This document shows positions 3,239-56,952 of a stretch of DNA of 64,000 nt, one piece after another; position 1 is the stretch's first letter; each line of letters begins with the position of its first letter. The DNA is from Harmothoe impar (taxonomy: Eukaryota > Annelida > Polychaeta > Phyllodocida > Polynoidae). The DNA is taken from contig OX381704.1 in NCBI GenBank assembly GCA_947462335.1, forward strand, positions 45,078,942-45,142,941, read 5' to 3'. Both the position numbers and the translations under genes were made by a program. Under the pieces are notes generated by a model. That model saw only the letters and a program-made list of their open reading frames with translations. It did no database searches and had not been told where the DNA came from.

Positions 3239-4170
3239 TCAATTTGAGGCGAGTGATTTCACTAGCGCTGCATTGAGTCTGTTGTTGGCTGCTGGCCTGA
3301 TATATGTGCGGTGTGCATTAGAGCGCCAGCCGCCATACTTCTGTATCTGAGTGTCTGGGATGCCTGCATTGTGGGCTTCTGTGGCCGCTGAGACCCTTAG
3401 CCCGTGCAGGACGTACATGTCTGTTCTTTCCATACTTTCCTGACCTGTGTGACCGGTACGGGTTCCCTGTCTTCCGGGAACATGAACAGGGGGTCTGTTG
3501 GGGCGCGTGTGGGTGTGTCCATGCAGACTTGTCTTACTGCTGTCACCACACACAGGGGGCGCTCCTGCGCAGGCAGTAGGGTTAGAGTCTTTTTCTGACC
3601 CACTTTCTGCATGTTCTTCCCCGCCTTGATTGTCACTACTAGGTTTAGGCCCTGGAACACCACATCTCCTCTTGTGAGGTGGCGTATAGACCTGAAGGCT
3701 TTTACTGACGGGGGAGTTACTTCTGTCGGGCGCAGAGCTGCGTAGAATTGAAGAAGTAGGGCAGCTCTGACGACATTGTTTGTAGGTGTGTCCTGGAGTC
3801 CCAATACAACCTGCCTTAGCACCTGCATGGGAACTGGCAGTTTGATCTTGGGCACATAACTTTTGTCTCTCTCCAGGGCCTCCATGGCTCGGTGCACTGC
3901 TGGATGGCCCAGCTCCATGGTGGGATTGCCCGTCAACCTTACAAACACTCTTGCATGAGAGATGTAGTTTGCCAGTGTGGACGGGGCGCTGACGTGTGTC
4001 GCCATGTACTCTATGAACATGCACACGCTGCTGTGGTGAATGAGCTCTGGGGGGGTCCCCAGGACCCTGGAGAACGCGATGAATGTCCCTGCTGCGGCTG
4101 CATGTGCCCTGTTTGTGGCTGGAGCCCGTGCCTGGTGCTGACGCTGAGTGGCACATTGCTGCAGCCACAC
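3239..4170 (-). pseudogene. Ngaro tyrosine recombinase, frameshifted
   Basis: Two overlapping minus-strand frames together cover a tyrosine recombinase. The first (4170 to 3397) carries a SAM-like N-terminal part (MATHVSAPSTLANYI) and the first catalytic arginine in AALRPTEV. The last 75 residues, in another frame ending at 3239, hold the HxxR box (LHGLRVSAATEA), the KYGGW turn and the catalytic tyrosine in AHRTYIRP. The frame changes around 3410-3450, so no intact enzyme can be made. An intact version would integrate the circular cDNA without a target duplication. Confidence 0.88.
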
Positions 4171-4208
4171 CAGCGCCGGATCTGCAAATGATGCGGGGTT
4201 TAATTACA

Positions 4209-5698
4209 TCAAACACAACAGGGATGGCCGGGATGAGGGCGAGGCTGTTGCTGCTGCATATGTCTGCTACTGCCTGTAGGGGGGACTGGGCCTTTCTCCA
4301 CTGCCTCGGGTAGGCCTAGCTCTTCTAGTAGGGCCTTAGCTGCCTGGTAGTCCTCGAATGCCTGGGCCCTGGAGGGAGACAAGAGGACCAGATCGTCAAG
4401 ATACATATGGCAGTGTATTCCCTTTTGTCTAAGTATGCACACAATGGCTTCTGCTACCCTCTGCATGCTACAACTTGAACTACGCCCCCCAAATGGCATT
4501 GTTATATCACAGAAGAATTTCCCGACCCATTCCATGCCCAGGAGGGGCCAGTCAATTGGGTCAGAGAGAAAATTCTTGTAAGCACGGGAGACGTCTGTGG
4601 TACTTATGAATGTGCCGGGGCCCATGTCTAGGAGGTCATTAACAAGTGTATCTATTGATGGGAGGGCATGGTCCCTGGCTTCGCCAAGAACTGTGTTTTT
4701 CATAATGTAGCTGTTTATGGAAGTGGGTTTGGGGAATGTCATGTCTATTATGACTCTTCTGTCTGCTGACTCCCTCTTCTCCCTGGACATCAGGGGGGAC
4801 ACATGTGTCCACTGCTTGAAGGGTGGGGAGTCGTATGGGCCTAGGATACCTCCATAGCCCATCTCTTTCTTAATGAAACTGTCTATAGCGTCTGGGTACT
4901 GTGTGGCACTCTTGTGGTTGGGGACCCCGGTTGTATCTGATACGGGCCCCATATAGCCCATGGGGAACCCGAACCTGATGAAATCTAATAGCTGCCTGTG
5001 GTCATCTGTATGGGACAAGTACTTTTTCCAAGCTGCAAGATTCAGCTTAGTGGGGAGCTCGATACGCGCCTCACATGCATTGGGGAGGCCCATGGCTTTG
5101 ACTGCCGAATATATATTTACATACTCTAAGTGACTGTCAGTTTGAATGAAATCCGGCCATGAGTCAATGCGATGTTGTTTGAATGCATGCGCTGACATAT
5201 TAATTCCAGAATTGAAATTGTCGGTTTCACAAGCCTTTCTAATGGCGGGGAAGTCCATGTCTTTACCTGAGGCGATGTTTTCAGGCAGTGGTGGGGTGTT
5301 TGACGCCCATTGATCGATTCTGAACGAAGCCGGGCTCTGGGCGAGGGGGCACGGCGGAGACTGGCGTGTGAACGCGGCCTCCACATGTTCTGAACGATGT
5401 ACGGCTGGCGGCCTGCGTCTCCATGGGGCTTCTGCAACAATTGGCGTATCATTAGCGTGAAATTCATGTAAAACAACGCCTAAATCACTGCGTGAGCACG
5501 AGCCCGCCTTGTTTACATGCGGGCCGCCATCTTGAGTCTCGCCTAGCGCGAGGGGTTGGGTGAGAAATGGCGCCTTCTCGCCGCCCGCGAGAACCGCGGG
5601 CGAGCTGACATCATAGTGGGCGTGGCTTGTTTACATTACGGCCACGTGTTCCCGCACATGTGTCAATGTTATTGTTATTTACGGCATAATTTGTGACT
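4209..5698 (-). pseudogene. Ngaro reverse transcriptase, RNase H lost
   Basis: A minus-strand open frame has clear RT motifs in order: RRVIIDMTFPKP, STTDVSRAYKNF (motif A aspartate), MPFGGRSSSCSMQR (motif B) and MYLDDLVLLSPS (motif C, YLDD). The initiator is not clear; the frame stays open upstream of the GTG at 5384 to the edge of the inserted Polinton-like element, so its 5' end was probably separated by that insertion. About 30 residues after YLDD the frame runs into unrelated sequence and stops at 4209, next to the recombinase. The usual RNase H domain is missing, which points to an internal deletion. Confidence 0.88.
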
Positions 5699-5704
5699 GA
5701 CCTG
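5699..5704. repeat. 6-bp target site duplication GACCTG (left)
   Basis: GACCTG lies immediately before the left terminal inverted repeat and again immediately after the right one (13089-13094). Six-base duplications are diagnostic of Polinton/Maverick integration. Confidence 0.88.
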
Positions 5705-6132
5705 AGTAGTATAGTATGTATCGGAACGGGACTATGGTTAACTACTGTTTATTACTCAATCGACCTGCAGCCAATCAGAGGCCTCCATTTGGTCACGTGA
5801 CCGGAAGTGACCTACTTAGGGGATTAGTGGTGACGTCACGTGACCTAGTTAGCCAATCAGAGGCCGCCATTTGGTCACGTGACCGGAAGTGACGTCATAT
5901 GACCTACTTATGGACCGGAAGTGATGTCATATGACCTACTTAGGGGACCGGAAGTGACGTCATATGACCTAATTTAGGATCACGTGACCGGAAGTGACCT
6001 GATGAGTCACGTGACCGGAAGTGACGTCACATGACCTAATGGCCAACCGGAAGTGAGTGACCTCATTGAGGATCACGTGACCGGAAGTGACCTGATTGAT
6101 CACGTGACCGGAAGAAGAAGAAGAAGAAGAAG

Positions 6133-6163: not shown

Positions 6164-6830
6164 GACGTCACGCGACTTAATGAAGAGATGAGCGTCTTTA
6201 AGGGGTCACGCGCTTTAAAATGTGATATTTTTTTTTTTTTTGGAGGAGGAGGAGGAGGAGGATAAGGAGAGGAGGAGGAGGAGGAGGAGGAGGAGAAGGA
6301 GAGGAGGAGGAGAAGGAGGAGGAGGCGAGTCTCTTATTTTTTTCGGTAAACTAATAAAAAACACTACGATATAAGTTTTTTTTTCATTTTTATTGTTTTA
6401 CGAGCGACTGGAAGTGACTTATTGAACTAGGTAGAAGAGTGTATAAGGGGGGAGGGGAGGGGAGGGGAGGGGAGGGGAGGGGAGGGGAGGGGAGGGGGGA
6501 GGGGGGCCCCTTTTAGGATGCATGAGGCGGGTGGGAGGGGAGGGGGGGAGGGGGGAGGGGGGCACTCTAGGGGGGTGGGGGGGCACTCTAAGGGGCGTTT
6601 GTCTCTTTTAAGAAAAAAAGAAAAGAAAAGATTTCAATCGAGAGACACGCTTCTTCCTCTCGAGAGGAAGAAGCGTGTCTCTTCATTTTTTTTTGTTTAT
6701 CACGTGCTTCGATGAGGGGATCAGCTGCGACTGGAGGAAGTGACACTTTAAGAGGACACGCGTCTTAATTGTTATAATATTTTTTTTTACTTACTAATAA
6801 AGAAGACGTATGAAAATAAAACACAACAAT
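6162..6830. repeat. Low-complexity inner flank with G-rich arrays and a 40-bp palindrome
   Basis: There is no gene here. The stretch holds a GGA/GGAGGA array (6241-6330), a GGGGA array (about 6446-6600) and a perfect 40-bp palindrome (6642-6681) with half-site GAGACACGCTTCTTCCTCTC. A segment around 6786-6830 is shared, inverted, with 12545-12592 and carries polyadenylation-like AATAAA on its gene-facing strand. Confidence 0.7.
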
Positions 6831-7508
6831 TCACATGTCCGTCGTTCTCGTTGTTTCTTGCTTGATAAAGTCAAGTAATATCGTGATGCCGAGGTCAAAC
6901 TTTCCCATGTCCTCAGTCAACACTCGAAGGAGTTCAAAAGGCGTACCGCCGGCACCGTCAGCTTCATCTTGCCACATTTTCAACACTCGGAAGGCCCACT
7001 CAGCGGGACTTCCTCCGTATTCGCATTCTTCAGCGATCTTATCTAACCTCTCAGGCGACAATTTTAAATGGTCCCCCACCTCTTTCCACCTGCTACCTAG
7101 ATGTCTGCCGAGGGTGCCCAAGTGCTTATGCATCGCGCGCGAGTCGGGGTTTTCGAAATCCAACCCCTGTCTGTGGAGAAGGGACATCCACTGAGCCAAC
7201 AGTTCCACGCGTCTAATGCGGGTGAAGACGCGACCGAGCTCTCCCCATCTATGACGATGCGGGGTTTCACCCCACCAGACTCGGAACATCGCCGTACACA
7301 GCTCCTCCGGTGTCTTGACACTGCGCTCTACTAGAGCATCCATACGGGCGGCGGTAACTTTTAAGCTACTGCCCAACTCTCTCCAAGATCCGCTCAACTC
7401 TTTACCTAGTTGACGAAGCAAGGCGTCGCTATATGCTAAGCGCCGCTGTCCTACCTCTCTGTTCTCCCCATCGGTCTGCCTCGCGCGTCTCACATCGTCA
7501 AGCAGCAT
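6831..7508 (-). CDS. Tandem Death-domain protein carried by the Polinton-like element
   Basis: This 225-residue frame encodes two Death-fold repeats and little else. The first spans about residues 29-105 (LGKELSGSWRELGSSL, then a tryptophan-bearing helix). The second spans about 126-215 (LGRHLGSRWKEVGDHL...ERLDKIAEEC, then AFRVLKMWQDEA). The spacing of leucines, the W of helix 2 and the late-helix W fit the Death-domain consensus. Death domains join adaptor proteins in apoptosis and NF-kB/Toll signalling, so a host-interaction role is likely, but this is inferred. The ATG at 7508 immediately follows an in-frame TAA that ends a 20-codon leader frame. No enzymatic domain, signal peptide or membrane segment is visible. 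It could be a captured host gene or a long-resident viral one. Confidence 0.8.
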   Translation of the reverse strand: MLLDDVRRARQTDGENREVGQRRLAYSDALLRQLGKELSGSWRELGSSLKVTAARMDALVERSVKTPEELCTAMFRVWWGETPHRHRWGELGRVFTRIRRVELLAQWMSLLHRQGLDFENPDSRAMHKHLGTLGRHLGSRWKEVGDHLKLSPERLDKIAEECEYGGSPAEWAFRVLKMWQDEADGAGGTPFELLRVLTEDMGKFDLGITILLDFIKQETTRTTDM

Positions 7509-7571
7509 TTACTTTTTTTCAGGTGGACAAGGCGGTGAAGGCGAGCTTGAAAGTGGAATAGCTTGAGCCAT
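7509..7571 (-). other. In-frame upstream leader ORF abutting the Death-domain gene
   Basis: On the minus strand an ATG at 7571 opens a 20-codon proline/serine-rich frame. It ends in TAA (7509-7511), which directly touches the ATG of the Death-domain frame, in the same phase. It may be a regulatory upstream ORF, a site of stop readthrough, or the true N-terminus broken by a recent nonsense change. Sequence alone does not decide between these. Confidence 0.55.
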
Positions 7572-7616: not shown

Positions 7617-8560
7617 TGGTAGTAGACGTTACTGTGGTCAGAGGCGATATGGTTTTTTTCCAACAGAAATCAGAGCTTTTATACAGAGGGAGTTTAATCC
7701 TATTTCCAACAGCACTCCAGCTGTCTAGCGACCTGTCCGCATGACGCTTTTTCAGCCGCTCCGCTCCTTAAGAGCTTAGATGACGAGGGGTATGTCATTG
7801 CTATCCGTGGAGACCAGCTGAAAACGTTTTTTTTTCCTCATCCATAGCCTTACCTCCTACCCCCTACCTGAGGACGTCTCCCTCCCTCTGACATTCATTG
7901 TAACAAACGTCAGAGGTCAGGTGAAAATCGGATTTTTTCATGCACAGCCTTAGTCAGCTGTCACCCCTCCCTATTGAACTAGCCGGCCGCCGCCGGCCGG
8001 CCCGGTCTACTCACCACGGCAGGAGGCGGTGATTTTTTTTTGTCTTACACTTAAGTCGCTCACCACATGCACACGCCTCTACTCACAGACAGACACGTTC
8101 GTCTTAGGGGGTCCTGCTTCACGCCACACGCCTCCTGTAGTTTTTTTGTATACACGCTCTAAGCTCATCACCGTTAATCCTTTATACAGCTAACGCGCGT
8201 TGAATTGCTGAACAGGGTGGTAAGTAGCTTAGCTCATGACAGTGGATCCCTCAAAAAAGAGGGGAAAGGGATCCAGCTGAAAACGTCATACCTTATGTCT
8301 TTTGTTTCTCTTTGTGAATGGCCGCCGGTCAGTCGGCGGCAGCAACCGCTTAATCCTTTATACAGCTAATGCGCGTTGAATTGCTGAACAGGGTGGTAAG
8401 TAGCTTAGCTCATGACAGTCGATCTCTCAAAAGGGGGGAAAGAGATCCAGCTGAAAACGTCATGCCTTATGTCTTTTGTTTCTCTTTGTGAATGGCCGCC
8501 GGCCAGCCGGCGGCAGCTGAACAGGGGCAGTAAGTAGCTTAGCTCTAGAAGCGAGAAGGC
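7572..8560. promoter_or_regulatory. Divergent control region with tandem repeats and hairpins
   Basis: This gene-free stretch separates the divergently transcribed Death-domain and PC4-like genes. It has a GGC/GGT trinucleotide tract (7586-7622). A tandem repeat of about 170 bp, roughly 2.1 copies, spans about 8170-8545. Each unit contains an inverted pair around GGATCC or GATCTC, a CAGCTGAAAACGTCAT block and a GCCGCCGG/CCGGCGGC hairpin. Earlier blocks near 7790-8010 share the CAGCTGAAAACGT and CGCCGGCC parts. Direct repeats with hairpins between divergent genes suggest a promoter or replication control region; this is inference. Confidence 0.55.
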
Positions 8561-8561
8561 G

Positions 8562-8569
8562 TATATAAG
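8562..8569 (+). promoter_or_regulatory. TATA box for the Ser/Ala-rich plus PC4-like gene
   Basis: TATATAAG lies about 60 bases upstream of the ATG at 8628, with a likely start site about 30 bases downstream at the TCACTCACTCATTC stretch. The ATG sits in a strong context (CACCACCATGA). Confidence 0.65.
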
Positions 8570-8627: not shown

Positions 8628-8798
8628 ATGAGCAAAAGACAACACCTAGCGCCGTCCAAGGATCTAAGCAAGTTCAAGAACAAGACTACGCGGAACAGCG
8701 CTCGTTTAGCGTCAGTGCCTCCTCTTGCTACTGAAAATGAGACTACCGCCGCAGCCGCTTGGTCTTATCACCCTCCTGCTGTAGCGAGCGCTCGCAGC

Positions 8799-8845
<47 letters not shown>

Positions 8846-10204
8846 TAGTACTACTGGTAGTAGTCGTCGTGCTAGCGACGTTGTTACACTCGCGACGGTA
8901 CACGTTGCTGCTAAGCGCGCTGCCGCTGCTGCTGCTGCTGCTGCTGGTGATCCTCGTGCTGCGGCTGCTGCTGCTGCTGCTGCACCTTCTACTGCTGCGC
9001 CTGCTACGGCTGCGCCTGCTGAGGCTGCTGCGCCTGCTACTGTTGCGTCTGCTGCTGCTGCTGCTGCTGCTTCTGCTGCACCTGCTGCTACCGCTACTAC
9101 TACTGACGACAACGCTCCTGGCACAGCGCAGTACTGGCAACCGGGTTTTTACCTCCCCACTACTGTTGATGATTTTGATGACCTGCCGCACGTTGCACAG
9201 CCCCTCTCCACCACTACATCGACCGACGCCCTCGACGCCGCTCGCGCTGAGAGTTACAGCTATTCGGACACTCAGCCCCTAAACCAAGAAGAAGAGGAGG
9301 AGGAGGAGCAGCAGCAACAGGGTGAGACAGAGAACGACACTGACGACGAGGCGTAAAAGAACCCGAAGGGAAAGGGGCGGACGGTACGTTTTTTCGGCTC
9401 CCCTCTTCCCCAGCTTTCGACCTCACTTCCACTGGTAGCGCGTCCGGTCCGTGGCGATTGCCCTCACCGCCACCTTACGAGGGCGGCGGCGCTTCATCTT
9501 CTACCGCTACACTCAGCACCGACGGCGTGTGGCTGCTCTGTTCCAACAACGAGGTCTCGGATACCACCAGCGCTGACGCTGCTCCTGTTATCGGTTCTGC
9601 TGCTGATTCAGCTCACGCTGATGGTGTTACTCTTCTTGCGGGTCTGAAACGTTCTAAGGTGAGTTCCAGAACAACAAGGCCTACTAAGAAGAGAAAAATA
9701 CAAGAAAAAGAACGAGATGGACGAGAAGAAGCAGAGAAAACCTTCTCCCGTCTTCTCGGGTTAGAGTTCTGCTTAGACGGGGCTTTGACGCTGGAGATCT
9801 GGGAGGACGTGGCTAGACTGTCTAGGAGGCCGCGCTACACAAAAGACGGCCGGGTGAAAGAGGCGTCTCTGACCAGAAGCAAGCGAGTGCACTTCACTGC
9901 CGACGCGCTGCGCGAGCTAATAGCACGCATCGCCGATATCCGCGCAGTGGTGCGCATACGCGACACAGCGGCCGCGCAAGGAAGACCTAATCACACCCCC
10001 TGGTTCGCAGTGCTGGATGAGGAGGGCGAAGTGTACGCAGCTGTGAGCTACTACAGCGGTAAGAACCTCGTCCACGTGCGCAAGTACGAAGGTCCTGACA
10101 AAAAACCCACACAGCAGGGGGTGACGCTGTCCGCCAGAGCGCTCAAAGAGTTGGATGACAAAACAGAGATTATTCTCAAATATCTCGGTATAGATTCGGA
10201 ATGA
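8628..10204 (+). CDS. Ser/Ala-rich protein with tandem PC4-like ssDNA-binding domains (two exons)
   Basis: Exon 1 (8628-9321) begins with a basic segment (MSKRQHLAPSKDLSKFKNK) and continues through long serine and alanine runs to an acidic Glu/Gln tract. The frame hits a stop at 9354. Exon 2 lies in another frame, open from 9344 to 10204, and contains no methionine codon, so it must be entered from upstream. A GTGAGA donor after 9321 and a CCTCTTCCCCAG acceptor ending at 9413 define a 92-bp phase-1 intron that joins the frames exactly, giving about 494 residues. The C-terminal part has two PC4-like modules; the clearer one has NLVHVRKY, then PTQQGVTLSARALKEL. PC4 proteins bind single-stranded DNA and act in transcription and replication. 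A Ser-rich/acidic N-terminus is also a PC4 trait. A replication or late-transcription role is inferred. Confidence 0.65.
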
Positions 10205-10349: not shown

Positions 10350-12444
10350 CCACTACAACAACAAAGACGTCAAACCTTTCATAGAAGCTCTGAAAAATCA
10401 CGCTAAATTTTTCCAAGATCGCGGCATTGACATGTTTGAAGACGGAGTTTCTCTCGCCGGTTTGACTTTACGGTTCCTCTTCCAAAACCTAGAAGACGCG
10501 TTCACAACGTTCCCCCAGTTCGACGCCGTCCTCCACGCTCTGATCAAAGAAAATCTAGTCGGCGGTCCTTCCATCATCTTAGATTTCCATAGATTTCACG
10601 AGAAGGGCACCACGCGGATAAGGGAGCACAAGTACGGCGAAGAAGCGAGACCGTGCCAACACATCCTAGGACTAGACGCTAACTCTCTGTACTTGCGCTG
10701 CATGAGCGAAGCACACTGCACGGGCTATTACGCGGTGAGACGACCTGAGACCGAGTTCAAGCCCGAAATTAGGCAAAGAAACTCTCACAGCGCTTTGGAG
10801 TGGTTACGCTTCGTAGAGCACGACCGCGACGTGAAACTGCGCCACGCTTTGAACGGCGGCGAGATGGTTGTAGGCTGTCGGAGAATTCGCGTGGACGGGT
10901 TTCACGCGGCCTCTAATACGGTTTTCCAGTTTCACGGGTGTTGGTTCCACGCTCACGAGTGCATACCGTCGCACCGATATCAGTGCGCTTCACTGAGGGA
11001 GGAGAGACGCGACAGAACGACTAGAGTAAGCGCTTACTTGAAAGCGCTAGGTCACAAGCTGGTCGTCGTGTGGGAGTGCGAATGGAGAGAGATGAAGCGT
11101 CGAGATGAGCGGGTTAAGGCCTCCCAACAACGCTGGAAGGTTGACGCTTTGAAAGTGTCTCGAAACGCGATGAGCGAGAGCGACATCCTTTCCGCTGTGA
11201 AAGAGGAGAAAATGTTCGGTTTAGTTCAAGTGGACATCACTACGCCGCCTCACCTACGAGACTACTTCGAAGAAATGACCCCCGTTTTCAAGAACGTGAC
11301 CGTTTCAAAATCGGACATAGGACCTCACATGTCAGACTTTGCGCAGGAAGAAAAGCTGTTGAACACGCCTCAGAGATGTCTGATAGGGAGTTACCACGGA
11401 AAAAATATTCTCTTGGGAACGCCGCTTCTCAAGTGGTATTTAGAGCACGGTTTGATAGTCACCAAAGTGCAGCTGGTCGTAGAATACCTACCTAAACGCT
11501 CCTTTGCCGGTTTCGCGGACGAAGTAACGGCGGCGCGAAGACGTGGCGACGTGAACGAGAACGAGAAAATTCTGTCAGACTGTTACAAGTTAATGGGAAA
11601 CGCTACGTACGGTAAAACAATCTGCAACAAAGAAAAACACACGGCGGTGAGATACACTGACAGTCGGAAGTTCGAACTATTGGCCAATTCGTGGCGCTTC
11701 AAAAAGGTGTCCAAGTTGAGTTCCGATCTGTTTGAAGTCGAACTACAACCGAAAACAGTCAAGAACAACCTCCCTATTCAAATAGGGTTCATGGTATACC
11801 AGTACGCGAAGTTGAAAATGTTAGAGTTCACATACGACTTCTTGGATAGATTCGTCGATCGGCGCGATTATGCCCTTTGTCAAATGGACACCGACAGTCT
11901 TTACATGGCTCTCAGCGGTGACACGTTGGATGACCTAGTCAAACCTCGCCTGAGAGAGACGTACTTCAGAGAGAAACGAAAGTGGCTTCCGACAGCGGTG
12001 TGCGACGATCACTTAGAGCTTTTCGTGAAGACAAAAACGGAAAGAGTGCGAGAATGGTGTCCGCCGCCCGGCGGATGTTGTGAGAGACAGTACCTTCACG
12101 ATCTGAGAACTTCGGGGCTTATGAAAGCGGAGTGGGAAGGTGACGGGATCCTAAGTCTCAACCCTAAGACTTACATTTGCTACGATCGAGTCAGCGACAC
12201 CGGTGAAAGAAAATCCAAAAAATGGAGTGCAAAAGGCGTACAGAAGAAACAAAACCCTAAGGAACCAGACGACTTCTTGGATGTTCTTCGCCAACGAAAA
12301 ACTCTCATTGCTGTAAATAGAAATTTCAAAGTGGTGCGAAACAAAATGGTCACCTACACCATAGAGAAAGACGGCGTGCGCTACTTGTATTATAAGCGTC
12401 GCGTGCATTCTGACGGTGTGACAACGAGTCCTTTAGAGATATGA
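10348..12444 (+). pseudogene. Protein-primed-type family B DNA polymerase, N-terminally truncated
   Basis: The frame is open from 10348; the first ATG is at 10432, giving 670 residues against roughly 1,000 or more in Polintons. The start retains a Y-x3-D pattern like the last exonuclease motif, while the earlier exonuclease motifs are absent. Polymerase motifs are complete: A (LGLDANSLYLRCM), B (KLMGNATYGKT) and C (MDTDSLYM). An inserted region around FQFHGCWFHAHEC...VVVWECEW resembles the Vsr-like/CxxC module in Polinton and adintovirus polymerases. With an ATG inside the truncated region it could still be translated, but proofreading would be lost. It belongs to the DNA_pol_B_2 group, which copies linear protein-capped genomes. 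Confidence 0.88.
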
Positions 12445-12675
12445 AAAAAAAAAATAAGCGTGTTATTGCTTGATTGAGTGCATCTTTTCAAAAATAGAGT
12501 GTTTATCAAGATTGAAAAAAAAGAAATAAAAAAATAAAATAAATCATTGTTGTGTTTTTATTTTCATACGGCTTCTTTTATTAGTAAGTCGCGCAGTCTC
12601 TTAAAGCGTCACTCATGTGACGACGTCGCTTCCAGTCACGTGATCCTAAAGACCCTCACTTCCTAAACAAAAAAA
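12445..12675. terminator. AT-rich 3' flank with polyadenylation-like signals
   Basis: Several AATAAA motifs follow the polymerase stop (12525-12545). The block that follows (about 12545-12592) matches, inverted, the 3' flank of the Death-domain gene at 6786-6830. Both gene sets therefore run outward into a shared terminal sequence. Confidence 0.6.
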
Positions 12676-13088
12676 CTTCTTCTTCTTCTTCTTCTTCCGG
12701 TCACGTGATCAATCAGGTCACTTCCTGAGGTCACTCACTTCCGGTTGGCCATTAGGTCATGTGACGTCACTTCCGGTCACGTGACTCATCAGGTCACTTC
12801 CGGTCACGTGATCCTAAATTAGGTCATATGACGTCACTTCCGATTCCCCCTAAGTAGGTCATATGACGTCACTTCCGGTCCATAAGTAGGTCATATGACG
12901 TCACTTCCGGTCACGTGACCAAATGGCGGCCTCTGATTGGCTAACTAGGTCACGTGACGTCACCACTAATCCCCTAAGTAGGTCACTTCCGGTCACGTGA
13001 CCAAATGGAGGCCTCTGATTGGCTGCAGGTCGATTGAGTAATAAACAGTAGTTAACTATAGTCCCGTTCCGATACATACTATACTACT
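12676..13088 (-). repeat. Right terminal inverted repeat of the Polinton-like element
   Basis: This is the reverse complement of 5705-6161, ending ...CATACTATACTACT. It has a shorter AAG/CTT tract and a few substitutions, and is followed by the GACCTG duplication at 13089-13094. The close match between the repeats indicates a fairly young insertion. Confidence 0.9.
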
Positions 13089-13098
13089 GACCTGCTAG

Positions 13099-13134: not shown

Positions 13135-14523
13135 CTAGTTTTTTGCAGGTTGGAAGCCGGGGTTATGGCGTTGGTTGCCGTTGTTCGCTGTGTTGTACAC
13201 GCCCTCGCTGTTAACATGGCCGTGCGGGCCTGAGCCGTGGCCGTTGCTTGCTGGCTGCCCGCCGTCCATGAACTTGTTGTTGCAGGCTACTAGCGTGTGA
13301 CCCAGCCTCTTCCCCTTTGAGTAACAGAAAGAGCAGACATGCAGCAGCTTGACCGGGCCGTCATCATGCTCCCCTTTAGATTTACAACCCCGGTGTGAAT
13401 TAAACTCATTGCAAGGGAATGTGTGGCGGGATGAGGCGGGGGCGGCCGCCCTCTGCCCCGTGTCGGTCCTCGTGCCGCCGGTCAGACAGATGAGTGTACG
13501 GGCATTCTGGACCCGATCCCAGTTATTCCATGTGTATGCGTCCTGCTCCACATGATCAAACACATGCTGGCTCCACTCCCTTACTGCCGGCCAGTGGCGC
13601 CTCATGCTGTCTGCGGAGACATCATGGAGGTGGTCCATCATGGAGTCATAGAACTCAGGCTCATACGCCTTCTTATTTTGTAAGAGGGCGATGAGGGCTG
13701 TGATATACTCAGACTTGTTCATGTGGTGTCGGTAGTCAAGCTTCTGCCTCAAGGTTGACATGCCGACTTTTTCTAAATACATGTAAGGCTTGTGCATGAG
13801 TGCATCATTGGCTGCGTTGTATCTGAAGAAGTTCTTACCATCTGCAGGGATGTGTATGAGATTTTCACGAGCCAATTGCCTGTCTATGTATCTGTCATGA
13901 TTCTGTTGCTGTCGGAGCTCCCTGGGTGGTGGGAGCGTGGGATGTGCCGCGGCCCCTGCTGTACTGTGGGCAGGGGGCTGGTGGGGCACTGGGGTGCTGG
14001 AGGCGGCGGCTGGAGGGCAGGGCGCCGCGGCCTGCGAGCCCGCGGGTGCAGGTGTGTCCAGGAGCCGGTCCAGCTTGGAGCCTAGGCTGTGCATTTGTAG
14101 GCCTAGGCCCTGGATGTCGGCCTTCACTGTGCGCACCTCGTCTTCTAGGTGATTGAGGCGCACAACTGAGGCGTTGCTGAGGTCTTTGGACGATACCCTG
14201 GAGAAAGACCTGTCGATGAAGGAGGGGGCAGCCTCGTCCACGGTCTTGAAAGTGACCTCGGCGTCTACTGACGAGCCGTCACGGGCCGTTTAGTGGCGTG
14301 ACCGCGACCGTCGTGACCCCGAGACCGTTGGTTGGGACGGCGCGTCTCCCGCACCTGACCGTCTTGATGAGGACGGTTGGTGGGAGGACGTATAAACAGA
14401 TGTGGAGGCATGGTGTGAGTCCTCCTGCGAGTCGTCCCCGTGGAGAGGCGGGGCGCTCCTTGTGGAAAAGTTCCATTGCCGGCGTGACCTGTGGCGGCGT
14501 CTTGAAATCACACTGTCGGCCAT
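13135..14523 (-). pseudogene. Ngaro gag-like ORF1 with an in-frame stop
   Basis: Translation from the ATG at 14523 begins MADSVISRRRHRSRR, a basic Arg/Ser segment. It meets TAA at 14290-14292 and then continues in the same frame to 13135. The second part has a heptad-rich coiled coil (LNHLEDEVRTVKADIQGL), a Pro/Ala-rich linker, a helical core and a Cys/His cluster (CNEFNSHRGC...HVCSFC...HTLVAC) like a zinc-binding nucleocapsid. Length and order fit Ngaro ORF1. The single stop suggests recent inactivation, since the rest of the frame is clean. Confidence 0.8.
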
Positions 14524-35388: not shown

Positions 35389-35399
35389 AGGGTACAATT

Positions 35400-36317
35400 T
35401 GAGGGTCGTACATATAGGAAATATGATGCCGAGCTATTTAAGAGATGTATAACGAATGCTGACTGGGGCCCATATGATGATTGTGAAAATGTAAACGCGC
35501 GCTGGGACTTTATCATTAAATTATTGTCCAAAGAACTGGATATAATGTGCCCTATGAGGAAATTTAAGGTAAATAAGGCAAGGTCACCCTGGGTAACCGA
35601 TCACCACCTAGAGCTAATTCATGACAAAGACTCAGCCCTAACAAAAGCCAAACGCACTAAGTCAATAGAGGACTGGGAAATTGCCAAACGCCTTAGAAAC
35701 TCAACAAACAAAGCATTAAAAAAAGCAAAAGCAAAATTTATTAGAGATGCCCTAGAAGAAGACAAAAATGATAGTAAAAAATTCTGGAAAATTATAAACG
35801 GTTTATTAAGGGGAGAGAAATCAAACGCAAATTTAAATCTTAGGGACAAAATTAAAGACATACCTATTTCTTCCATAGAGACTCCAGATTTCATAAACAA
35901 CTATTTTATTAACATAGGTCCAAACTTGGCTAGGGATTATGAGGAAATATGGTCGTATGATGGTGAAATGTTACCCGAGGGAATTGGTGATATTACGACT
36001 GACGCAGAAGAGGCAATAGCCCTGATAAAGGACATAGATACTAACAAATCCTCGAGCATTGATGGGGTTTCAGCAAGAGCATTGAAGGATCGCCTGATGG
36101 CTATACCTGATAAGGTTGTAAATATGTTTAAAAGCTCGTTAAATGAAGCCACTGTCCCGCAGGCCTGGAAACTGGGTACAGTCATTCCGCTCCAGAAAGA
36201 AGGAGACAAGACTGACGTAGCCAATCTCAGACTGGTAACCTTGCTCCCTGTTATAGGCAAGCTGCTTGAGAAGGTGGTAAATAAGAGGTTAATGTATTAT
36301 CTGGAATCTAATGATAT
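35400..36317 (+). pseudogene. LINE RT, N-terminal portion
   Basis: The frame carries the Lys-rich linker after the endonuclease (RNSTNKALKKAKAKFIRDAL), FWKIINGLLRG, NNYFINIGPNLA, the finger motif SSSIDGVSARALKD and the WKLGTVIPLQKEGD...LVTLLPVIGKLLEKVVNKRL region (RT motifs 0-2). It ends at the Penelope insertion inside YYLESNDI. Confidence 0.85.
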
Positions 36318-38402
36318 TTTTTTATGTTTCAGCTAATGGCTGCCCCACAGAAAAAATCTCGTGTGTGGTGGACCATTACATTAGACCCTTTGTCTATAAA
36401 ACCAAGTCCTACATTAGGGACACAACAGATTTCCTTAATGAATTAAAGTCACTAGGCCCTTTGCCCAATGGCTGTATCCTAGGCACCTTAGATGTCACCT
36501 CCCTGTACACTAATATCCCCAATGAGGAAGGAGCCATGGCCATTTATAAACACTTGTTTTATAAACGGACCCCCCTCCCTGGTGAAATGTCAAATGAAGC
36601 TATCTACACACTACTATGGATTGTACTAGCCAAAAATAATTTTGACTTCAATGGGAAACATTATTTACAGGTAGGTGGCACCGCCATGGGAACTAGGGCC
36701 GCCGCTAGTTACGCTAACCTTTTTATGTCCGCCAACAGACCTGTACACCAAACCTACAGACAGTTGTAATTACCTCCATTTTGAGTCTGCCCATACCAGA
36801 CACAGCATCAGGGGTATCCCATACGGCCAATTCACACGAATTAGACGTATCTGCTCTGATGAGAGAAATTTCATCAGACACTGTATCCAGAGAGGCAGAC
36901 ACTTTGTACGCCGTGGGTACGCCCCTAGCATGGTAGCACATGCCTTCTACAAGGCATGCCAAAAAGACCGCTCAACCCTGCTAGAGATAAAGGCTAAGAA
37001 AAATCGGGCCCTGGAGGAAGCTACCTTTTTAGTTTCTACCTACATCCCCGGTTTCAATGCCGTTCACAAGATTGCACTTAAAAATTGGGACATGCTAGGC
37101 GGTTCTTGCAGTACCAGGGAAATCCACAGTAAGGGTTTCAAAATGTCCCATAGACGCCCAAAAAGTCTAAAGGACCTTCTTGTGAAAGCAAAGTTGCGGC
37201 CTGAAGAGCCCCTAAAGCCTAGGCCCAACAAAAACAGGTGTCTATCTTGGCCCAAGTGCAACTATTGTCCCCAGTTGAACAAGAGTGGCAAAATAAAGTG
37301 CACAGTCACTGGCCGAGAATATACCAGTAAATACAATGTGTGTTGCTCCAGCTCAAATTTAATTTACTGTATCACCTGCAAGATCTGTGGCATACAGTAT
37401 GTCGGCCAGACAGAAAATGCCATAAAGACCCGTTTTTCTGACCACCACGGAAAAATAAAGAGAAAAGAATTTGAAAAGAGTGCCGTGTCACGCCACATGA
37501 ATTCTTGCTCAAAAAGAGGTGAAGATTCGAAACACAGAGACATGACCATCACTGTAGTAGACTTCATACATGCTGTGTCAAAGTCCGATAGGGCCAAGTA
37601 CCTACGGAACTTGATTGAGTATAATTGGATTCAGAGGTTACACACTAATGCCCCCATGGGCCTAAATGTGGCCGACCCTCTGGTCCATTGATGACAACCC
37701 ACAATCGGAGTGGAGGGGGGAACTGGGTGGTTGCCACGTACAACTAACCAAGTTACCCGAAAGGGCCTTTTCCTGGAACCCCCCTCTCAATATTTATTTT
37801 TATAGTAGGTGGGCACTCTCTATGAGTCCCCATAACTGTCACTTTTTCTTTGCACCTCGGTGCAAATTATGACCGCCCCCCCTCGGAATTTTAAATTTTT
37901 AGGCCTAGCACCTATGAATAATTCCTTGGTTTGACTCTAAGTCATGACCCATAAAGCCACACAACATTTATGATAATTCACTAGATTTAAATAAATGTCT
38001 GTGGTTTTAGTAATTTTTCACACCCCAAGAAAACTTTTTCTTGACTGTTAAAAATTAACACCCATGCCCCCAGTGGTGTATGGTACCGCATAATTAATTA
38101 CAGATTTTCTGACCTGTCAGAATAATTTTTAATTATTTTATTTCAATGCAGTCTGAAGATCCCCTTAGGTGAAACCGCCAGTTCCTCATATTAATCCCTC
38201 TGTGGACTGAGGACCAATCAGAAGCCCAGTTGCATATCCTCCATGGCAACCATTCTTCTGTCAACAACCAGGCCAGAACCAAGACTGGCCCTGATTGGTC
38301 AATGTAGGTCACGTGACAGACACTATAAAAGGGCACTTCGCTTTTGAATTTGCTCATTCCAGCGGTAACTGCTCTATGAACAGGTATACCCCGTCTCAAA
38401 TA
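36318..38402 (+). mobile_element. Penelope-like element, 5'-truncated
   Basis: CTGGAATCTAATGATAT stands on both sides (36301-36317 and 38403-38419), a 17-bp target duplication inside the LINE. The insert encodes Penelope RT and a GIY-YIG endonuclease on the plus strand, followed by a 3' region of about 0.7 kb. The RT start is absent. The 3' part contains CTGAAGA...GAAAC (38153-38175), a pattern seen at hammerhead-type sites of Penelope elements. Confidence 0.88.
36335..37691 (+). pseudogene. Penelope RT (internally deleted) and GIY-YIG endonuclease
   Basis: The first frame (to 36769) has the Penelope RT signature GTLDVTSLYTNIPNEEG, then the QVGGTAMGTRAAASYANLFM region. The sequence then shifts frame and jumps straight to a thumb-like region (GIPYGQFTRIRRICSDERNF), so the Y-x-D-D catalytic motif is gone. 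The second frame (36675-37691) ends with a Cys-rich linker (WPKCNYCPQL...CSSSNLIYCITCKICG) and a GIY-YIG domain (IQYVGQTENAIKTRFSDHHG). The endonuclease part looks intact, the RT does not. Confidence 0.88.
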
Positions 38403-46402: not shown

Positions 46403-48802
46403 TTAGGCCATGGTGTGCAGTACGCCTACAGCCACATACATTCCTGGATTGTTTGGAACACCAAGAATCACTGCCTTCCTTTTGAGTTTGGACCTGGGTA
46501 AACTATCAGTGATTTGAATAGGAGTGTCGTCATCTATAGTAGAGATGAAAAGGTCCTTAGAGCAACATGGCCTTTCATAAAGGGGTTTAAGGTCTTTTTG
46601 CAGGTACATGTCACAATTATATGTGCCATCTTGGTTTTCGCTATGAATGTAAACTAAATTGCGTTCAGTTGTATAGAAACAATTGTCATTGCTCTTAAAG
46701 TGTCGTGTACCTATTGTGCCAATATATTTGTTTTTATCACGGCGGACTACCTTGTCCAATCGGTCAAGTTGGCGTGCCACACTGACACATGCATTTTTTG
46801 ATGATGGCCTGACATAATTCTTAATAATCTGTAAGTGATTTTCGAAGCGGAATGCTCCAAGTTCGTCTAGCGATTTCCCCAAACGCAGGACATCATCTGC
46901 AATATGGCACATTGCATGAACATTGTAGATGGGAAATGCTGCACCGTATAGTGAAATTGATCTGTCAACAAAGTACTGCAACCATATCTTTGCCTGCGGG
47001 ATAAGTGGATCTCTAATAGATTTATCAGGGATGCAGAGTGCACGTATGGCTGCATGAAGGTAAATGAAATGGTCATATAGAGTTGGCTGCGATGCAAAGA
47101 ATTCTTTGAGTACTATCGGTCCAGTATAGAATAAAAAGGTCCTGAGTTCTTTAGCCTTCCAGTAGCTGATGTCACTAGTACCTCTCACTTCCTGCCGAGT
47201 AAAGTCACTTGGCATACAGTGACCCAGATCCTTTAACATCTTGTCTAATGACTCACGAACTGTCTTTGTTACTGGTTGGAATATGGCTACCATGATTGAA
47301 GGTGTGAGCCACCAATTAAGGAGCCTTTTGGTGACACCCAGACACACACTGTGCATAAAATCAAGCACAAACATGGTTACACATAGAACATCATAATTCA
47401 TCAGAGGGGTGCTCCCCTTCTGATGTAGCTTTGTTTTATCTGGTGACCAGTACTTCATTTCATCGAAGGCTATATCTGTCCTTTCCTCAGCATTATGAAA
47501 CATGTCTCTGTTGTGGCAAGTTGCATTTCCAGCTCTTATACCCACCATAGTGCAACGCTCACAACTAGAATACCCTGTATGTGCTTTGACATTCTTGAGC
47601 CAGGCCCTAGCAGGAGCATCACAGACCCATCCTAGCGTTTTGACAGGTATATTTCTATATCCTGTGTCAGGGTTGATGACTCTTAGGCCATTACTCTCTA
47701 GTTCTTTCAATTCATCAAGGAAAGGAGTAAGGAAATCCTCAAGTTCAGAAGGCTTTCCATACCCTTCAAAGACAGCCACTGTGACAGGGGGAAAGTCATC
47801 GAAGGCAACCAAAATAGGCCACATACTACGCTTGGTACTCTTACAAATTGGTATTCCATCAACATTAATTAGAAGGTTAATCTCTGTTATGGTACGTGCA
47901 TACTCAATGTCAGAGCATAATCTAGCTCTAATTCCCTTTTCTAGCCCTAGGTAGATGTATTTTCCATTATGCATCTCTTCAGAGTAAAGATCAAAAGCAG
48001 TGCCTTCAATTTTATGAAATGATGGAAGTTTGGCATCAAAGCAGTCATTTAGAAGATCCACTACATTCTTTTTGGACTGCTCTGTCCAATAACCTTTTGT
48101 CCATATCTCTCGCAATCTTGCTTGTACATCCTTTTTGTTACTGTCTGTGTCTATATTAGGCTCCTCATGCTCACTCAGATCTTCACAAGCAAGATCAGCA
48201 CATGACAATGGTAGTGGCTCAGGTTCTTGCATTTCCTCTTCACTTAGATTCTTACTAATGTGTTGTGGATCATCCATAGTCTCCACAACATGAACGTCAT
48301 CACATGATACATCCTTGTCATGGGGAGGGTTTTCATCGCAGATGACAGGTTCTATCTGATTCTTACTAATGCTTTGTGGATCGTCTGTAGTCTCCATAAT
48401 ATGAGTATCATTATATAATGCACCCTTGTCATGCAGAGGGTTTTCATCAAAGACGACAGGCTCATTTTCATTATCATTAACGTTATGTGGATCGTCAGTA
48501 ATGTTCACTTCATCAAATAATACATGCTGGTCATGTAACTCACTATTGAGAGAAGGTTCATCCATTGCATTGCTTTTACAGCAGCCAATCATTACAGGAG
48601 GACCATCATTAGTCCCTAAATCAAATGTGAACTCAAAATCGGCAAGCTCATCCAGGTCCTCATCAGGAACCATGGCTAGTTGTTTAGACACTGGTATCTC
48701 CTCAGGAGCATCATGGTCCTGATCTGCTTTCCTCTTACGTAGGTTGATCATGTAGGCATGTAGGTTATTGGGACCAGAATTTTCTCTAGCTTCGGATGCC
48801 AT
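46403..48802 (-). CDS. tnp2/En-Spm-like transposase
   Basis: This 799-residue frame starts at the ATG at 48802, directly after a likely splice acceptor (CTTTTTAG). The first 270 residues are acidic with near-repeats (NPPHDK-, EPV-CDEN-type blocks). The catalytic region has EINLLINVDGIPICKSTKRS (first Asp), a Cys/His zinc cluster (YSSCERCTMVGIRAGNATC), LDFMHSVCLGVTKRLL (second Asp) and ELGAFRFENHLQIIKNYVRP (candidate Glu). This is the order seen in the tnp2-like transposases of animal CACTA/En-Spm elements. The frame is uninterrupted, so it could be functional. The stop at 46403 is followed after six bases by a GTAAGT donor. That could link this transcript to the accessory gene by alternative splicing. 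Confidence 0.78.
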   Translation of the reverse strand: MASEARENSGPNNLHAYMINLRKRKADQDHDAPEEIPVSKQLAMVPDEDLDELADFEFTFDLGTNDGPPVMIGCCKSNAMDEPSLNSELHDQHVLFDEVNITDDPHNVNDNENEPVVFDENPLHDKGALYNDTHIMETTDDPQSISKNQIEPVICDENPPHDKDVSCDDVHVVETMDDPQHISKNLSEEEMQEPEPLPLSCADLACEDLSEHEEPNIDTDSNKKDVQARLREIWTKGYWTEQSKKNVVDLLNDCFDAKLPSFHKIEGTAFDLYSEEMHNGKYIYLGLEKGIRARLCSDIEYARTITEINLLINVDGIPICKSTKRSMWPILVAFDDFPPVTVAVFEGYGKPSELEDFLTPFLDELKELESNGLRVINPDTGYRNIPVKTLGWVCDAPARAWLKNVKAHTGYSSCERCTMVGIRAGNATCHNRDMFHNAEERTDIAFDEMKYWSPDKTKLHQKGSTPLMNYDVLCVTMFVLDFMHSVCLGVTKRLLNWWLTPSIMVAIFQPVTKTVRESLDKMLKDLGHCMPSDFTRQEVRGTSDISYWKAKELRTFLFYTGPIVLKEFFASQPTLYDHFIYLHAAIRALCIPDKSIRDPLIPQAKIWLQYFVDRSISLYGAAFPIYNVHAMCHIADDVLRLGKSLDELGAFRFENHLQIIKNYVRPSSKNACVSVARQLDRLDKVVRRDKNKYIGTIGTRHFKSNDNCFYTTERNLVYIHSENQDGTYNCDMYLQKDLKPLYERPCCSKDLFISTIDDDTPIQITDSLPRSKLKRKAVILGVPNNPGMYVAVGVLHTMA

Positions 48803-49660
48803 AGTGTATCTAAAAAGTACAAACAGATATGTTTGTCTAATGATTGAGGTTAAGCCAGATTTAGAATGACTGAATCTCACATAGTATGAAGGTATGGACA
48901 TGCAGTATGGGGCTACAATCCGGCAAAATATTGGCATGCACTGTATTAGCTACACCCCCAAAATCGACAAATCCTATAAGCCTAACAGGGGATCTGTAAA
49001 TTGTTAATTTAGTACAGCAGTATATGTTTGGTCATAGGGATATTAGTCAGAATGATGAATTGATATTGAAAAATGACTAAGGCCAAACAAAATATGAGTA
49101 AGGCCTTATGCTCATAGGAATGGATGACTAAGGTGGGTCAGTCACTACTCACAATATCTAATAGCCAATATATCTGTGAACAACAAACTACACCAACACC
49201 TATACACTATATAGCTGTATACTCATACCCAGTGAGTTTACCCTTTAAAATGTTGCTAGGTGCAGTTATCAAAAAGGATAAGGCACACACTTACTGGTAC
49301 CATGTCCCTGGGAAGTAATCACTTCCAGGGAAAACGTGTACCCAGCCTATTAGCTCTTATCAGTGCGGGCCACCACAACCAGCTCTAGTCCGGCCTAGGC
49401 CCTATAGGATTTATAGCAAAACAATGCTAACCACCTGTGAGGTCAGTAGTCTTTTGCAGAATAGTTTCTGACGATTTCTAACGAAAGCAAAATGTATTGA
49501 CTATCAATATATTGCAGAATACCTTCCGTCAATAGGCCTGCGTCCACTAGGATTTACAAGACTGTTTTGGCAGTTAAAAAGACAAAATGTGTTTTTCAGC
49601 ACCAAAACATTTGGAAAATGGGGACTGAAACATAGATGCCAGGGGGCACAGCCCCTGTAC
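48803..49660. other. 5' flank of the transposase gene
   Basis: No second gene is visible. It includes a diverged copy (about 49060-49145) of the GACTAAGGTGGGT repeat also seen at 17690-17830, and presumably the promoter and a 5' untranslated exon of the transposase. Confidence 0.45.
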
Positions 49661-56312: not shown

Positions 56313-56952
56313 TGTAACAGGTCAGTGAAAACGTCGAGCCCCACGGGGAGTCGAACCCCGGTCCCTCCGCTCCGGAGTTGAGAATGCTACCGCTGCACCA
56401 CAGGGCCAGCTGCTTCTCACTGCTCTGCTACCACAGGCGGGCAATGCGCTCTCCACGCACGCTCGGGCTGCCCCGAGTGATACGTGCCCGCTACATTACT
56501 CCCCTTCAGACTTTTGCTAGGTCCGCGGACAGACATGTTACTCAGCAATCTGTGATCAAAGCTAATCCCTTACTTAGAATTAGCCGGCGAAGCCAGTCAC
56601 CTGCCCTGAACATGTGTCTTTGGACGCACACATAGCACAAGCTGAAACCGCTCAGACTTCTGCCAGGTCAATGGAGGTCCCACGGACCTCCTAGCAGAAG
56701 CTGAACACGCTCAAGTACCCAACCCAGGGGGTCCCATCCTGGTCACGGCACCAGTGTAACAGACAGCGGAAAACGTGACAGCCCCACGGGGAATCGAACC
56801 CCGGCCCCTCCGCTCCGGAGTTGAGAATGCTACCGCTGCACCACAGGGCCAGCTGCTTCTCACTGCTCTGCTACGGTACTTGAGCTACCACAGGCGGGCA
56901 ATGCGCTCTCCACGCACGCTCGGGCTGCCCCGAGTGATACGTGCCCGCTACA
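56313..56952 (-). mobile_element. TRIM (miniature LTR retrotransposon) with tRNA-like sequence in its LTRs
   Basis: Two direct repeats (56313-56495 and 56755-56952) both run TGTAACAG...CCCGCTACA and are flanked by CATG (56309-56312, 56953-56956). On the minus strand the LTRs start TG and end CA. The first LTR is followed by TGGTGCCGTGACCAGG, a credible tRNA primer-binding site, and the last is preceded by a purine tract (AAGGGGAGTAA). The internal region is only about 260 bp and non-coding. LTR2 has a 13-15-bp insertion with GGTACTTGAGC. Confidence 0.78.
56330..56405 (-). repeat. tRNA-like sequence within the TRIM LTR
   Basis: On the minus strand, GGCCCTG and TGGGGCT can form a 7-bp acceptor-like stem (with G-T pairs). 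A D-arm (GTGC...GCAT) and a T-arm (CGGGGTTCGACTCCCCG) are intact, with box A (TGGTGCAGCGGTAGCAT) and box B (GGTTCGACTCC). The anticodon arm is not standard, so a working tRNA is unlikely. The same sequence lies in the other LTR at about 56775-56850. Confidence 0.65.

What the first reader, a model, noticed from the sequence alone, without database searches (positions are those of the whole stretch)
6831..7571. Virus-like element carrying a two-Death-domain protein
The frame consists almost entirely of two Death-fold repeats and lies inside the inverted repeats of a Polinton-like element, next to its DNA polymerase. Death domains assemble apoptosis and Toll/NF-kB signalling complexes. A compact tandem Death-domain protein with no effector domain looks like a captured adaptor that engages host signalling. 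I know of anti-apoptotic cargo in adintovirus-like elements but not this arrangement.
Basis: partly seen in the sequence, partly recalled or inferred. Interest (0 to 1): 0.88.

Follow-up and report, generated by a model that had tools for sequence, protein, structure and literature searches.

The report
Split Polinton carrying tandem Death-domain gene
One genome, likely an animal's, holds thousands of virus-like elements with matching ends whose genes are divided between two element types, one carrying a DNA polymerase and a protein with two Death-domain repeats and the other an integrase and likely shell genes, so they are likely two halves of one virus-like system in which the Death-domain protein would tamper with the host cell's death or alarm signals.

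Summary
The frame is real: minus strand, 6831-7508, 225 aa, two Pfam Death matches, inside a 7,384-bp element with Polinton ends (AGTAGT...ACTACT, ~0.4-kb inverted repeats, 6-bp target duplication). This copy is broken: PolB lacks its N-terminal part and an in-frame stop precedes the ATG. The host assembly (1.51 Gb, unnamed) holds 11,698 exact copies of the 25-bp terminus. One class, mostly 9.4 kb in the copies bounded here, encodes a tandem Death-domain protein, a PC4-like protein and PolB; no integrase or capsid-type gene was found in it. A second class (10.3-10.5 kb) shares the outer 98 bp and carries an RVE integrase, an adenain-like protease, a weak A32-like ATPase match and capsid-like frames, but no PolB. 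All 15 elements bounded here have perfect 6-bp duplications. I read this as a Polinton split into at least two complementary parts, the Death gene being a standing gene of the replication part. pN/pS of 0.17-0.47 and relatives at 56-98% identity support a function. Action as a decoy or adaptor on host death-domain complexes is inferred; joint packaging or mobility is not shown; a third class with the same ends was only sampled, and a complete one-piece form is not excluded.

The parts
5699..5704 (.). 6-bp target site duplication GACCTG, left
   Evidence: read; equal to 13089-13094 (scripted)
5705..6132 (+). left terminal inverted repeat, begins AGTAGT; outer 98 bp shared with the 10.4-kb class
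6789..6830 (.). block just 3' of the Death stop, repeated inverted at 12546-12589 just 3' of PolB (93%)
6831..7508 (-). tandem Death-domain frame, 225 aa
7509..7571 (-). upstream leader in the same frame, starting at an ATG and ending in a stop in this copy; three other copies viewed read on through it
   Evidence: (by eye)
7676..7683 (-). TATA-like site upstream of the Death gene
   Evidence: by eye; not tested
8562..8569 (+). TATA-like site upstream of the Ser/Ala-rich frame
   Evidence: by eye; not tested
8628..9356 (+). Ser/Ala-rich frame; in another copy (L011) one frame with the PC4-like part
9458..10204 (+). PC4-like frame (Pfam E 3.2e-5, 23.8 bits, under the cut-off of 25)
10432..12444 (+). 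C-terminal part of PolB with the polymerase motifs and a Vsr-like nuclease stretch; N-terminal part missing in this copy
12676..13088 (-). right terminal inverted repeat, ends ACTACT
13089..13094 (.). 6-bp target site duplication GACCTG, right

Best explanation
The frame encodes two Death-domain repeats and belongs to a high-copy Polinton-ended element of about 9.4 kb with three genes found (this one, a PC4-like gene and PolB), while an integrase and likely capsid genes lie on a separate 10.4-kb class with the same ends, so the two are likely halves of one split Polinton whose Death-domain protein would act as a decoy on host death-domain complexes. Shown here: both element classes, their ends, their 6-bp target duplications and their non-overlapping gene sets. 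Inferred: the second class supplies integrase in trans to the first, since both keep AGTAGT...ACTACT ends and 6-bp duplications, and PolB from the first replicates both through the shared outer 98 bp. Inferred: having no kinase, caspase or other effector part, the tandem death-fold protein caps or bridges FADD/RIPK1-type host assemblies and keeps the cell alive and quiet while the element replicates. I put the decoy step at about 45% and the split at about 65%.
For: Two Death matches (two relatives also with two stretches; profile). 150 listed places at 98-100% identity and 150 of a second set (capped lists). 13 of 19 copies, window included, bounded on both sides, 13 of 13 with identical 6-bp flanks, PolB matches in 17 of 19. 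Reverse test: 8 of 8 PolB-picked places hold the Death gene. pN/pS 0.173 window against 35 copies, 0.411 between subfamilies. 5,844 + 5,854 exact termini, reversed control 0. 10.4-kb class: rve E 3.6e-13, chromo 0.0015, Peptidase_C5 4.5e-4, Pox_A32 0.011; duplications in 2 of 2; outer 98 bp 97-98% identical to this element. First-class proteins were not found in the five second-class pieces, nor second-class proteins in 19 first-class pieces and the window element (tblastn E <= 1e-3).
Against: No virion, co-transfer or mobility was seen. One second-class copy was covered throughout and one at its ends only. The capsid label rests on recalled look: no Pfam match, no related PDB sequence, none in viral contigs. 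The protease, chromo and ATPase matches are below the curated cut-offs. A third class shares the ends, so satellites may exist. Two of 41 end pairs measure 13.2 and 15.9 kb and were not read. The death-fold models are of low confidence, Foldseek gave no match with E <= 0.001, and the second half fits CARDs as well. pN/pS rests on few changes (window against others: about 5 silent and 3 replacement). No host partner is known.
Confidence: 0.55

Rival explanations
1. Both classes are non-autonomous deletion derivatives of a complete one-piece Polinton with the same ends and are amplified in trans by it; the division of genes is not a functional split.
For: Shared termini and a third class with the same ends are what derivatives would show; two longer end pairs of 13.2 and 15.9 kb exist and were not read.
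Against: No pair of 18-20 kb among the 41 neighbouring pairs formed by the first 100 ends on C1. PolB frames of 1,364-1,383 codons are open in most of the 66 scored places (list favours intact copies). The inner TIRs differ between the classes beyond the outer 98 bp, unlike fresh deletions.
Confidence: 0.3
2. The element is as described, but the Death-domain protein activates host signalling or cell death, for example to favour spread or NF-kB-driven transcription of the element, instead of blocking it.
For: Death domains also nucleate active complexes (established knowledge); the fish iridovirus ISKNV uses a TRADD-binding viral protein to induce caspase-8-mediated apoptosis (PMC3352826, abstract and one further passage).
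Against: No effector or recruiting part beyond the two repeats was found; an integrated, vertically inherited element gains little from killing its cell.
Confidence: 0.2
3. The death folds serve inside the element's own replication or packaging (a scaffold binding PolB or the PC4-like protein) and do not touch host signalling.
For: The gene sits on the replication part next to PolB and a ssDNA-binding-like protein.
Against: The nearest sequence matches are host signalling adaptors (FADD, RIPK1), and death folds usually bind death folds; no death fold was found in the other frames searched with Pfam.
Confidence: 0.2
4. An ordinary host death-domain gene trapped by chance in one Polinton copy.
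Against: Hundreds of copies at fixed distance from PolB and TIR, with different target duplications.
Confidence: 0.01

Closest known systems
Vertebrate Mavericks/Polintons (PMC8097293; passages, section 7)
   Same: (AGT)2//(ACT)2 ends, 6-bp target duplication, TIR length within 46-1,447 bp, PolB and integrase genes, accessory genes near the ends.
   Different: Intact elements there are one piece of 12.7-24.6 kb with polymerase, ATPase, integrase, capsid and protease genes together; here PolB sits on a class of about 9.4 kb and the integrase, protease-like, ATPase-like and capsid-like genes on a 10.4-kb class. The word 'death' does not occur in its main text.
Adintoviruses / meldviruses (PMC11071296; passages)
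   Same: PolB with an OTU-like N-terminal part (seen by eye in another copy), RVE integrase with chromodomain, adenovirus-like protease; accessory anti-apoptotic homologues are stated for most mammal-associated ones.
   Different: Genes on two element classes; Death-domain accessory ('death' occurs 0 times in that main text); very high integrated copy number. Hexon homology not shown here.
Segmented bidnaviruses (PMC11071296; passages)
   Same: Adintovirus-type PolB in a divided genome.
   Different: Parvovirus-type replicase and capsid there; here Polinton ends, RVE integrase and adenain-like protease.
vFLIPs and the grouper iridovirus CARD protein (PMC9371342 passages; PMC4457926 listing and abstract start)
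   Same: Short viral proteins made of death-fold domains without effector; vFLIPs are tandem.
   Different: Those are DED and CARD; here Death domains by sequence, in a Polinton. Action is untested.

Membership tests
Polinton/Maverick | AGT-type ends with TIRs and 6-bp target duplication | tested here: met
   15 of 15 bounded elements: 13 with the window, 2 of the 10.4-kb class; 4 further PolB-class copies unbounded and 2 rearranged
Polinton/Maverick | protein-primed PolB | tested here: met
   518 PolB relatives, best 49%; polymerase motifs conserved; protein priming itself not tested
Polinton/Maverick | integrase, ATPase, protease and capsid genes in the same element as PolB | tested here: not met
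   absent from the PolB class pieces searched; present or likely on a separate class
Adintovirus | Hexon (MCP) recognisable by sequence to known adintoviruses | tested here: inconclusive
   MCP-like frame: no Pfam match, no related PDB sequence, no relative in viral contigs; no structure predicted
Death domain (PF00531) | profile match over the curated cut-off | tested here: met
   34.3 bits against 22.6, two stretches
Death domain (PF00531) | six-helix death fold in both halves | tested here: inconclusive
Multipartite virus | complementary gene sets on parts with common termini | tested here: met
   one second-class copy covered throughout
Multipartite virus | parts packaged or transmitted together and dependent on each other | not testable with these tools
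   needs expression, particle and mobility data

The most novel reading that the evidence does not exclude
A multipartite Polinton: an integrating animal virus-like element whose genome is divided into a replication part (PolB, PC4-like protein, tandem Death-domain host-control protein), a virion and integration part, and perhaps a third part or satellite, held together by a common 98-bp end and spread to several thousand copies in one genome.
Probability: 0.5. Interest if true: 0.95.

Novelty: new variant of a known kind. Interest (0 to 1): 0.88.

Why it matters
Polintons link transposons and DNA viruses, and the Mavericks in the paper read here are one-piece. A Polinton divided into complementary parts at very high copy number would be a natural case of genome splitting in an integrating DNA virus-like element, beside the segmented bidnaviruses that carry a related PolB. 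A Death-domain gene kept as one of three genes of the replication part would make the question of how such elements meet animal cell-death and NF-kB signalling directly testable.

Tried and rejected
Chance capture in one copy: rejected. Relatives in viral contigs: none confirmed in five scans. PHROGs: no match for the Death or PC4 frames at E <= 0.1. A genome search with rve (150 scored of 9,771 candidates) was filled mostly by frames of about 1,400 aa, LTR elements by recall, and says nothing about Polinton integrases. Other PolB families of this genome (129 matches from 83 scored candidates): at three such 3' ends no similarity to this TIR was found, and PolB similarity was about 24% (two loci), 34% over 52 residues (one) or none (two). 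The best viral structure match, a Marseillevirus 'death domain-containing protein' (prob 0.44, E 0.56), is too weak to use. pN/pS for PolB and PC4 was not obtained: script one search stopped with an error because all 11 PolB copies align with gaps (6 bases) to the window; its Death-gene lines did print. Third class (ends as here, matching neither class): one Ala/Ser-rich frame of 328 codons stop to stop near one end, no frame of 90 codons or more in two 1.3-kb inner pieces; not pursued further. Place lists are capped and favour copies close to the query, so counts of open frames (149 of 150 without stop; 129 of 150, counted by eye) are biased upward.

Papers: 'polinton' with 'death domain' gave 0 papers in the held open library; 'adintovirus' with 'apoptosis' gave 1, on a pearl-oyster birnavirus. 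The other listings show no title or abstract start describing a split Polinton among the rows shown; I did not read those papers except the passages cited. The original adintovirus paper is not held. Absence in print is claimed only for these searches.

Full report
WHAT IS THERE. The finding's frame is on the minus strand: ATG at 7508, stop at 6831-6833, 225 aa. Pfam finds the Death domain in two stretches (E 2.6e-8, 34.3 bits against a cut-off of 22.6). The frame lies inside an element of 7,384 bp bounded by inverted repeats (5705-6132 and 12676-13088) that begin AGTAGT and end ACTACT, with GACCTG on both outer sides. These are the commonest end motif and the 6-bp target duplication reported for vertebrate Mavericks (PMC8097293, passages and section 7). 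The other frames inside are a Ser/Ala-rich frame, a PC4-like frame (E 3.2e-5, just under cut-off) and the C-terminal 670 aa of a PolB. The element sits between a reverse-transcriptase frame with a weak phage-integrase match on one side and a gag-like frame (named by look, no Pfam match) on the other, all on the minus strand, so it probably jumped into a DIRS-like retroelement (the DIRS label is recalled).

THE WINDOW COPY IS BROKEN. The coordinate 7571 in the finding is an upstream ATG in the same frame; an in-frame stop separates it from the ATG at 7508. Three other copies viewed read on through that stretch, and the open frames of most places are 263-302 codons stop to stop against 225 here. 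The window's PolB lacks the N-terminal part that other copies hold, with zinc-finger-like, OTU-like and exonuclease-like stretches by eye. Intact copies exist; none is singled out.

COPIES. The host assembly (1.51 Gb in 736 contigs, unnamed) gave 150 scored places at 98-100% identity (3,919 first-look candidates; 149 of 150 without a stop). A query with the 56% relative P0003 gave 150 places at 56-59% to it (129 of 150 without a stop, by eye), two of which are in the first list by eye. Of 36 gene copies compared, window included, all align over 675 bp; 20 are identical, one has an internal stop, the mean pairwise difference is 0.2%. pN/pS is 0.282 over all pairs of these 36, 0.173 for the window against the 35 others, 0.411 between the two sets and 0.466 for the window against the second set, 0.386 within the second set (7 of the 10 fetched second-set copies used, the other 3 have a 3-base insertion), and 0.365 among the 35 (before that script stopped). 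The numbers of changes are small. This fits purifying selection with a recent burst.

THE PolB CLASS. The surroundings of 18 other copies were looked at in pieces. With the window, 13 of 19 could be bounded on both sides; 13 of 13 have identical 6-bp flanks, different from copy to copy; the 12 others measure 9,223-10,226 bp, ten of them 9,353-9,467. PolB matches were found in 17 of 19 (in one, residues 1-104 only). Of the 6 not bounded, three had no piece fetched on the Death side (one of these also shows no PolB), two lack one end in the fetched stretch, and one is interrupted by a reverse-transcriptase frame and shows no PolB. Reverse test: eight places picked from the PolB list all hold the Death gene at the predicted distance, six in one alignment over all 225 residues, one cut by the edge of the fetched stretch, one in two pieces. 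Three genes were found between the TIRs: the Death gene, one frame of about 560 codons joining the Ser/Ala-rich and PC4-like parts (L011; 556 in L017, split in some copies), and PolB (stop-to-stop frames of 1,364-1,383 codons in most of 66 scored places). Integrase, MCP-like, protease, ATPase and penton-like frames of the other class were not detected in 19 pieces of this class or in the window element (tblastn E <= 1e-3). PolB carries a Vsr-like nuclease stretch (E. coli Vsr structure, E 6e-4; phrog_13076 endonuclease 1.4e-6); homing-endonuclease insertions in Polinton PolBs are reported (PMC11071308, passage).

THE 10.4-kb CLASS. The exact 25-bp terminus occurs 5,844 times forward and 5,854 reverse, reversed control 0, which would be about 5,800 elements of all classes if the ends pair. 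The first 100 places, all on C1, form 41 neighbouring pairs: 28 of 8.7-9.9 kb, 11 of 10.3-10.5 kb, one of 13.2 and one of 15.9 kb; 18 ends stay unpaired. Two of the 10.3-10.5-kb pairs were read in pieces, one throughout and one at its ends. They show no Death, PC4 or PolB frame but an RVE integrase (PF00665 3.6e-13, over cut-off) with a weak chromo match (0.0015), a Peptidase_C5/adenain match (4.5e-4 and 3.9e-4 in the two copies, just under cut-off), a weak Pox_A32 match (0.011, frame cut by the piece) and a 437-aa frame recognised as MCP-like only by look. Their flanks are CGTTTT/CGTTTT and GTTATT/GTTATT. Their outer 98 bp are 97-98% identical to this element's ends; the class's own TIR runs to 392 bp (98.7%) and differs further in; inside, only short stretches of the promoter-like region (183 bp, 76%, and two shorter) are alike. 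A third pair of this length matches the class by 251-bp probes. Of six other pairs probed, three are PolB class and three match neither; two of these three match each other at both ends. Length alone does not decide the class: one PolB-class copy measures 10,226 bp.

READING. Neither class has a full set of genes; together they have PolB, integrase, protease-like, ATPase-like and capsid-like genes, which the Maverick paper describes in one element. The simplest account is a Polinton split into complementary parts that keep common ends. The main rival is that both are derivatives of an unseen complete element. In either reading the Death gene is a standing gene of the PolB class. What it does is inferred: no effector part, FADD/RIPK1-like matches, and known viral death-fold inhibitors (vFLIPs; a grouper iridovirus CARD protein, abstract start) point to capping of host death-domain complexes, about 45% likely; activation or a purely internal role remain open.

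LIMITS. 

Noticed in passing
G000:C1:649809-659630 and C1:1719827-1728554 (L109, L110, L115-L120): A third class of elements with the same exact 25-bp ends that matches neither the PolB nor the integrase class; one Ala/Ser-rich frame of 328 codons near one end, no frame of 90 codons or more in two inner pieces. A third part or a satellite.
   Followed up: partly
window 10912-11142 (PolB fragment residues 161-237): Vsr-like nuclease stretch inside PolB; several of its motif residues are invariant in the 13 aligned PolBs. May be an inserted endonuclease.
   Followed up: partly
window 3239-5630 and 13135-14289, minus strand: The element lies inside a retroelement with RT and phage-integrase-like frames on one side and a gag-like frame on the other (DIRS-like by recall).
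   Followed up: no
G000, places of PF03175: Several other PolB families in the same genome, with frames of about 1,177-1,189 codons (about 28 places) and 1,400-1,567 codons, only distantly like this PolB; likely other Polinton families.
   Followed up: partly
window 8170-8520: A direct repeat of roughly 150-175 bp in the divergent promoter-like region; part of the region is shared at 76% with the 10.4-kb class.
   Followed up: partly
window 35389-37691 and 46403-48949: RT-like and GIY-YIG-like frames (Penelope-like by recall) and an 848-codon transposase-like frame on the minus strand.
   Followed up: no
window 56336-56407 and 56777-56851, minus strand: Two Rfam/ARAGORN tRNA matches without a clear anticodon, 0.4 kb apart; perhaps tRNA-derived SINEs.
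   Followed up: no
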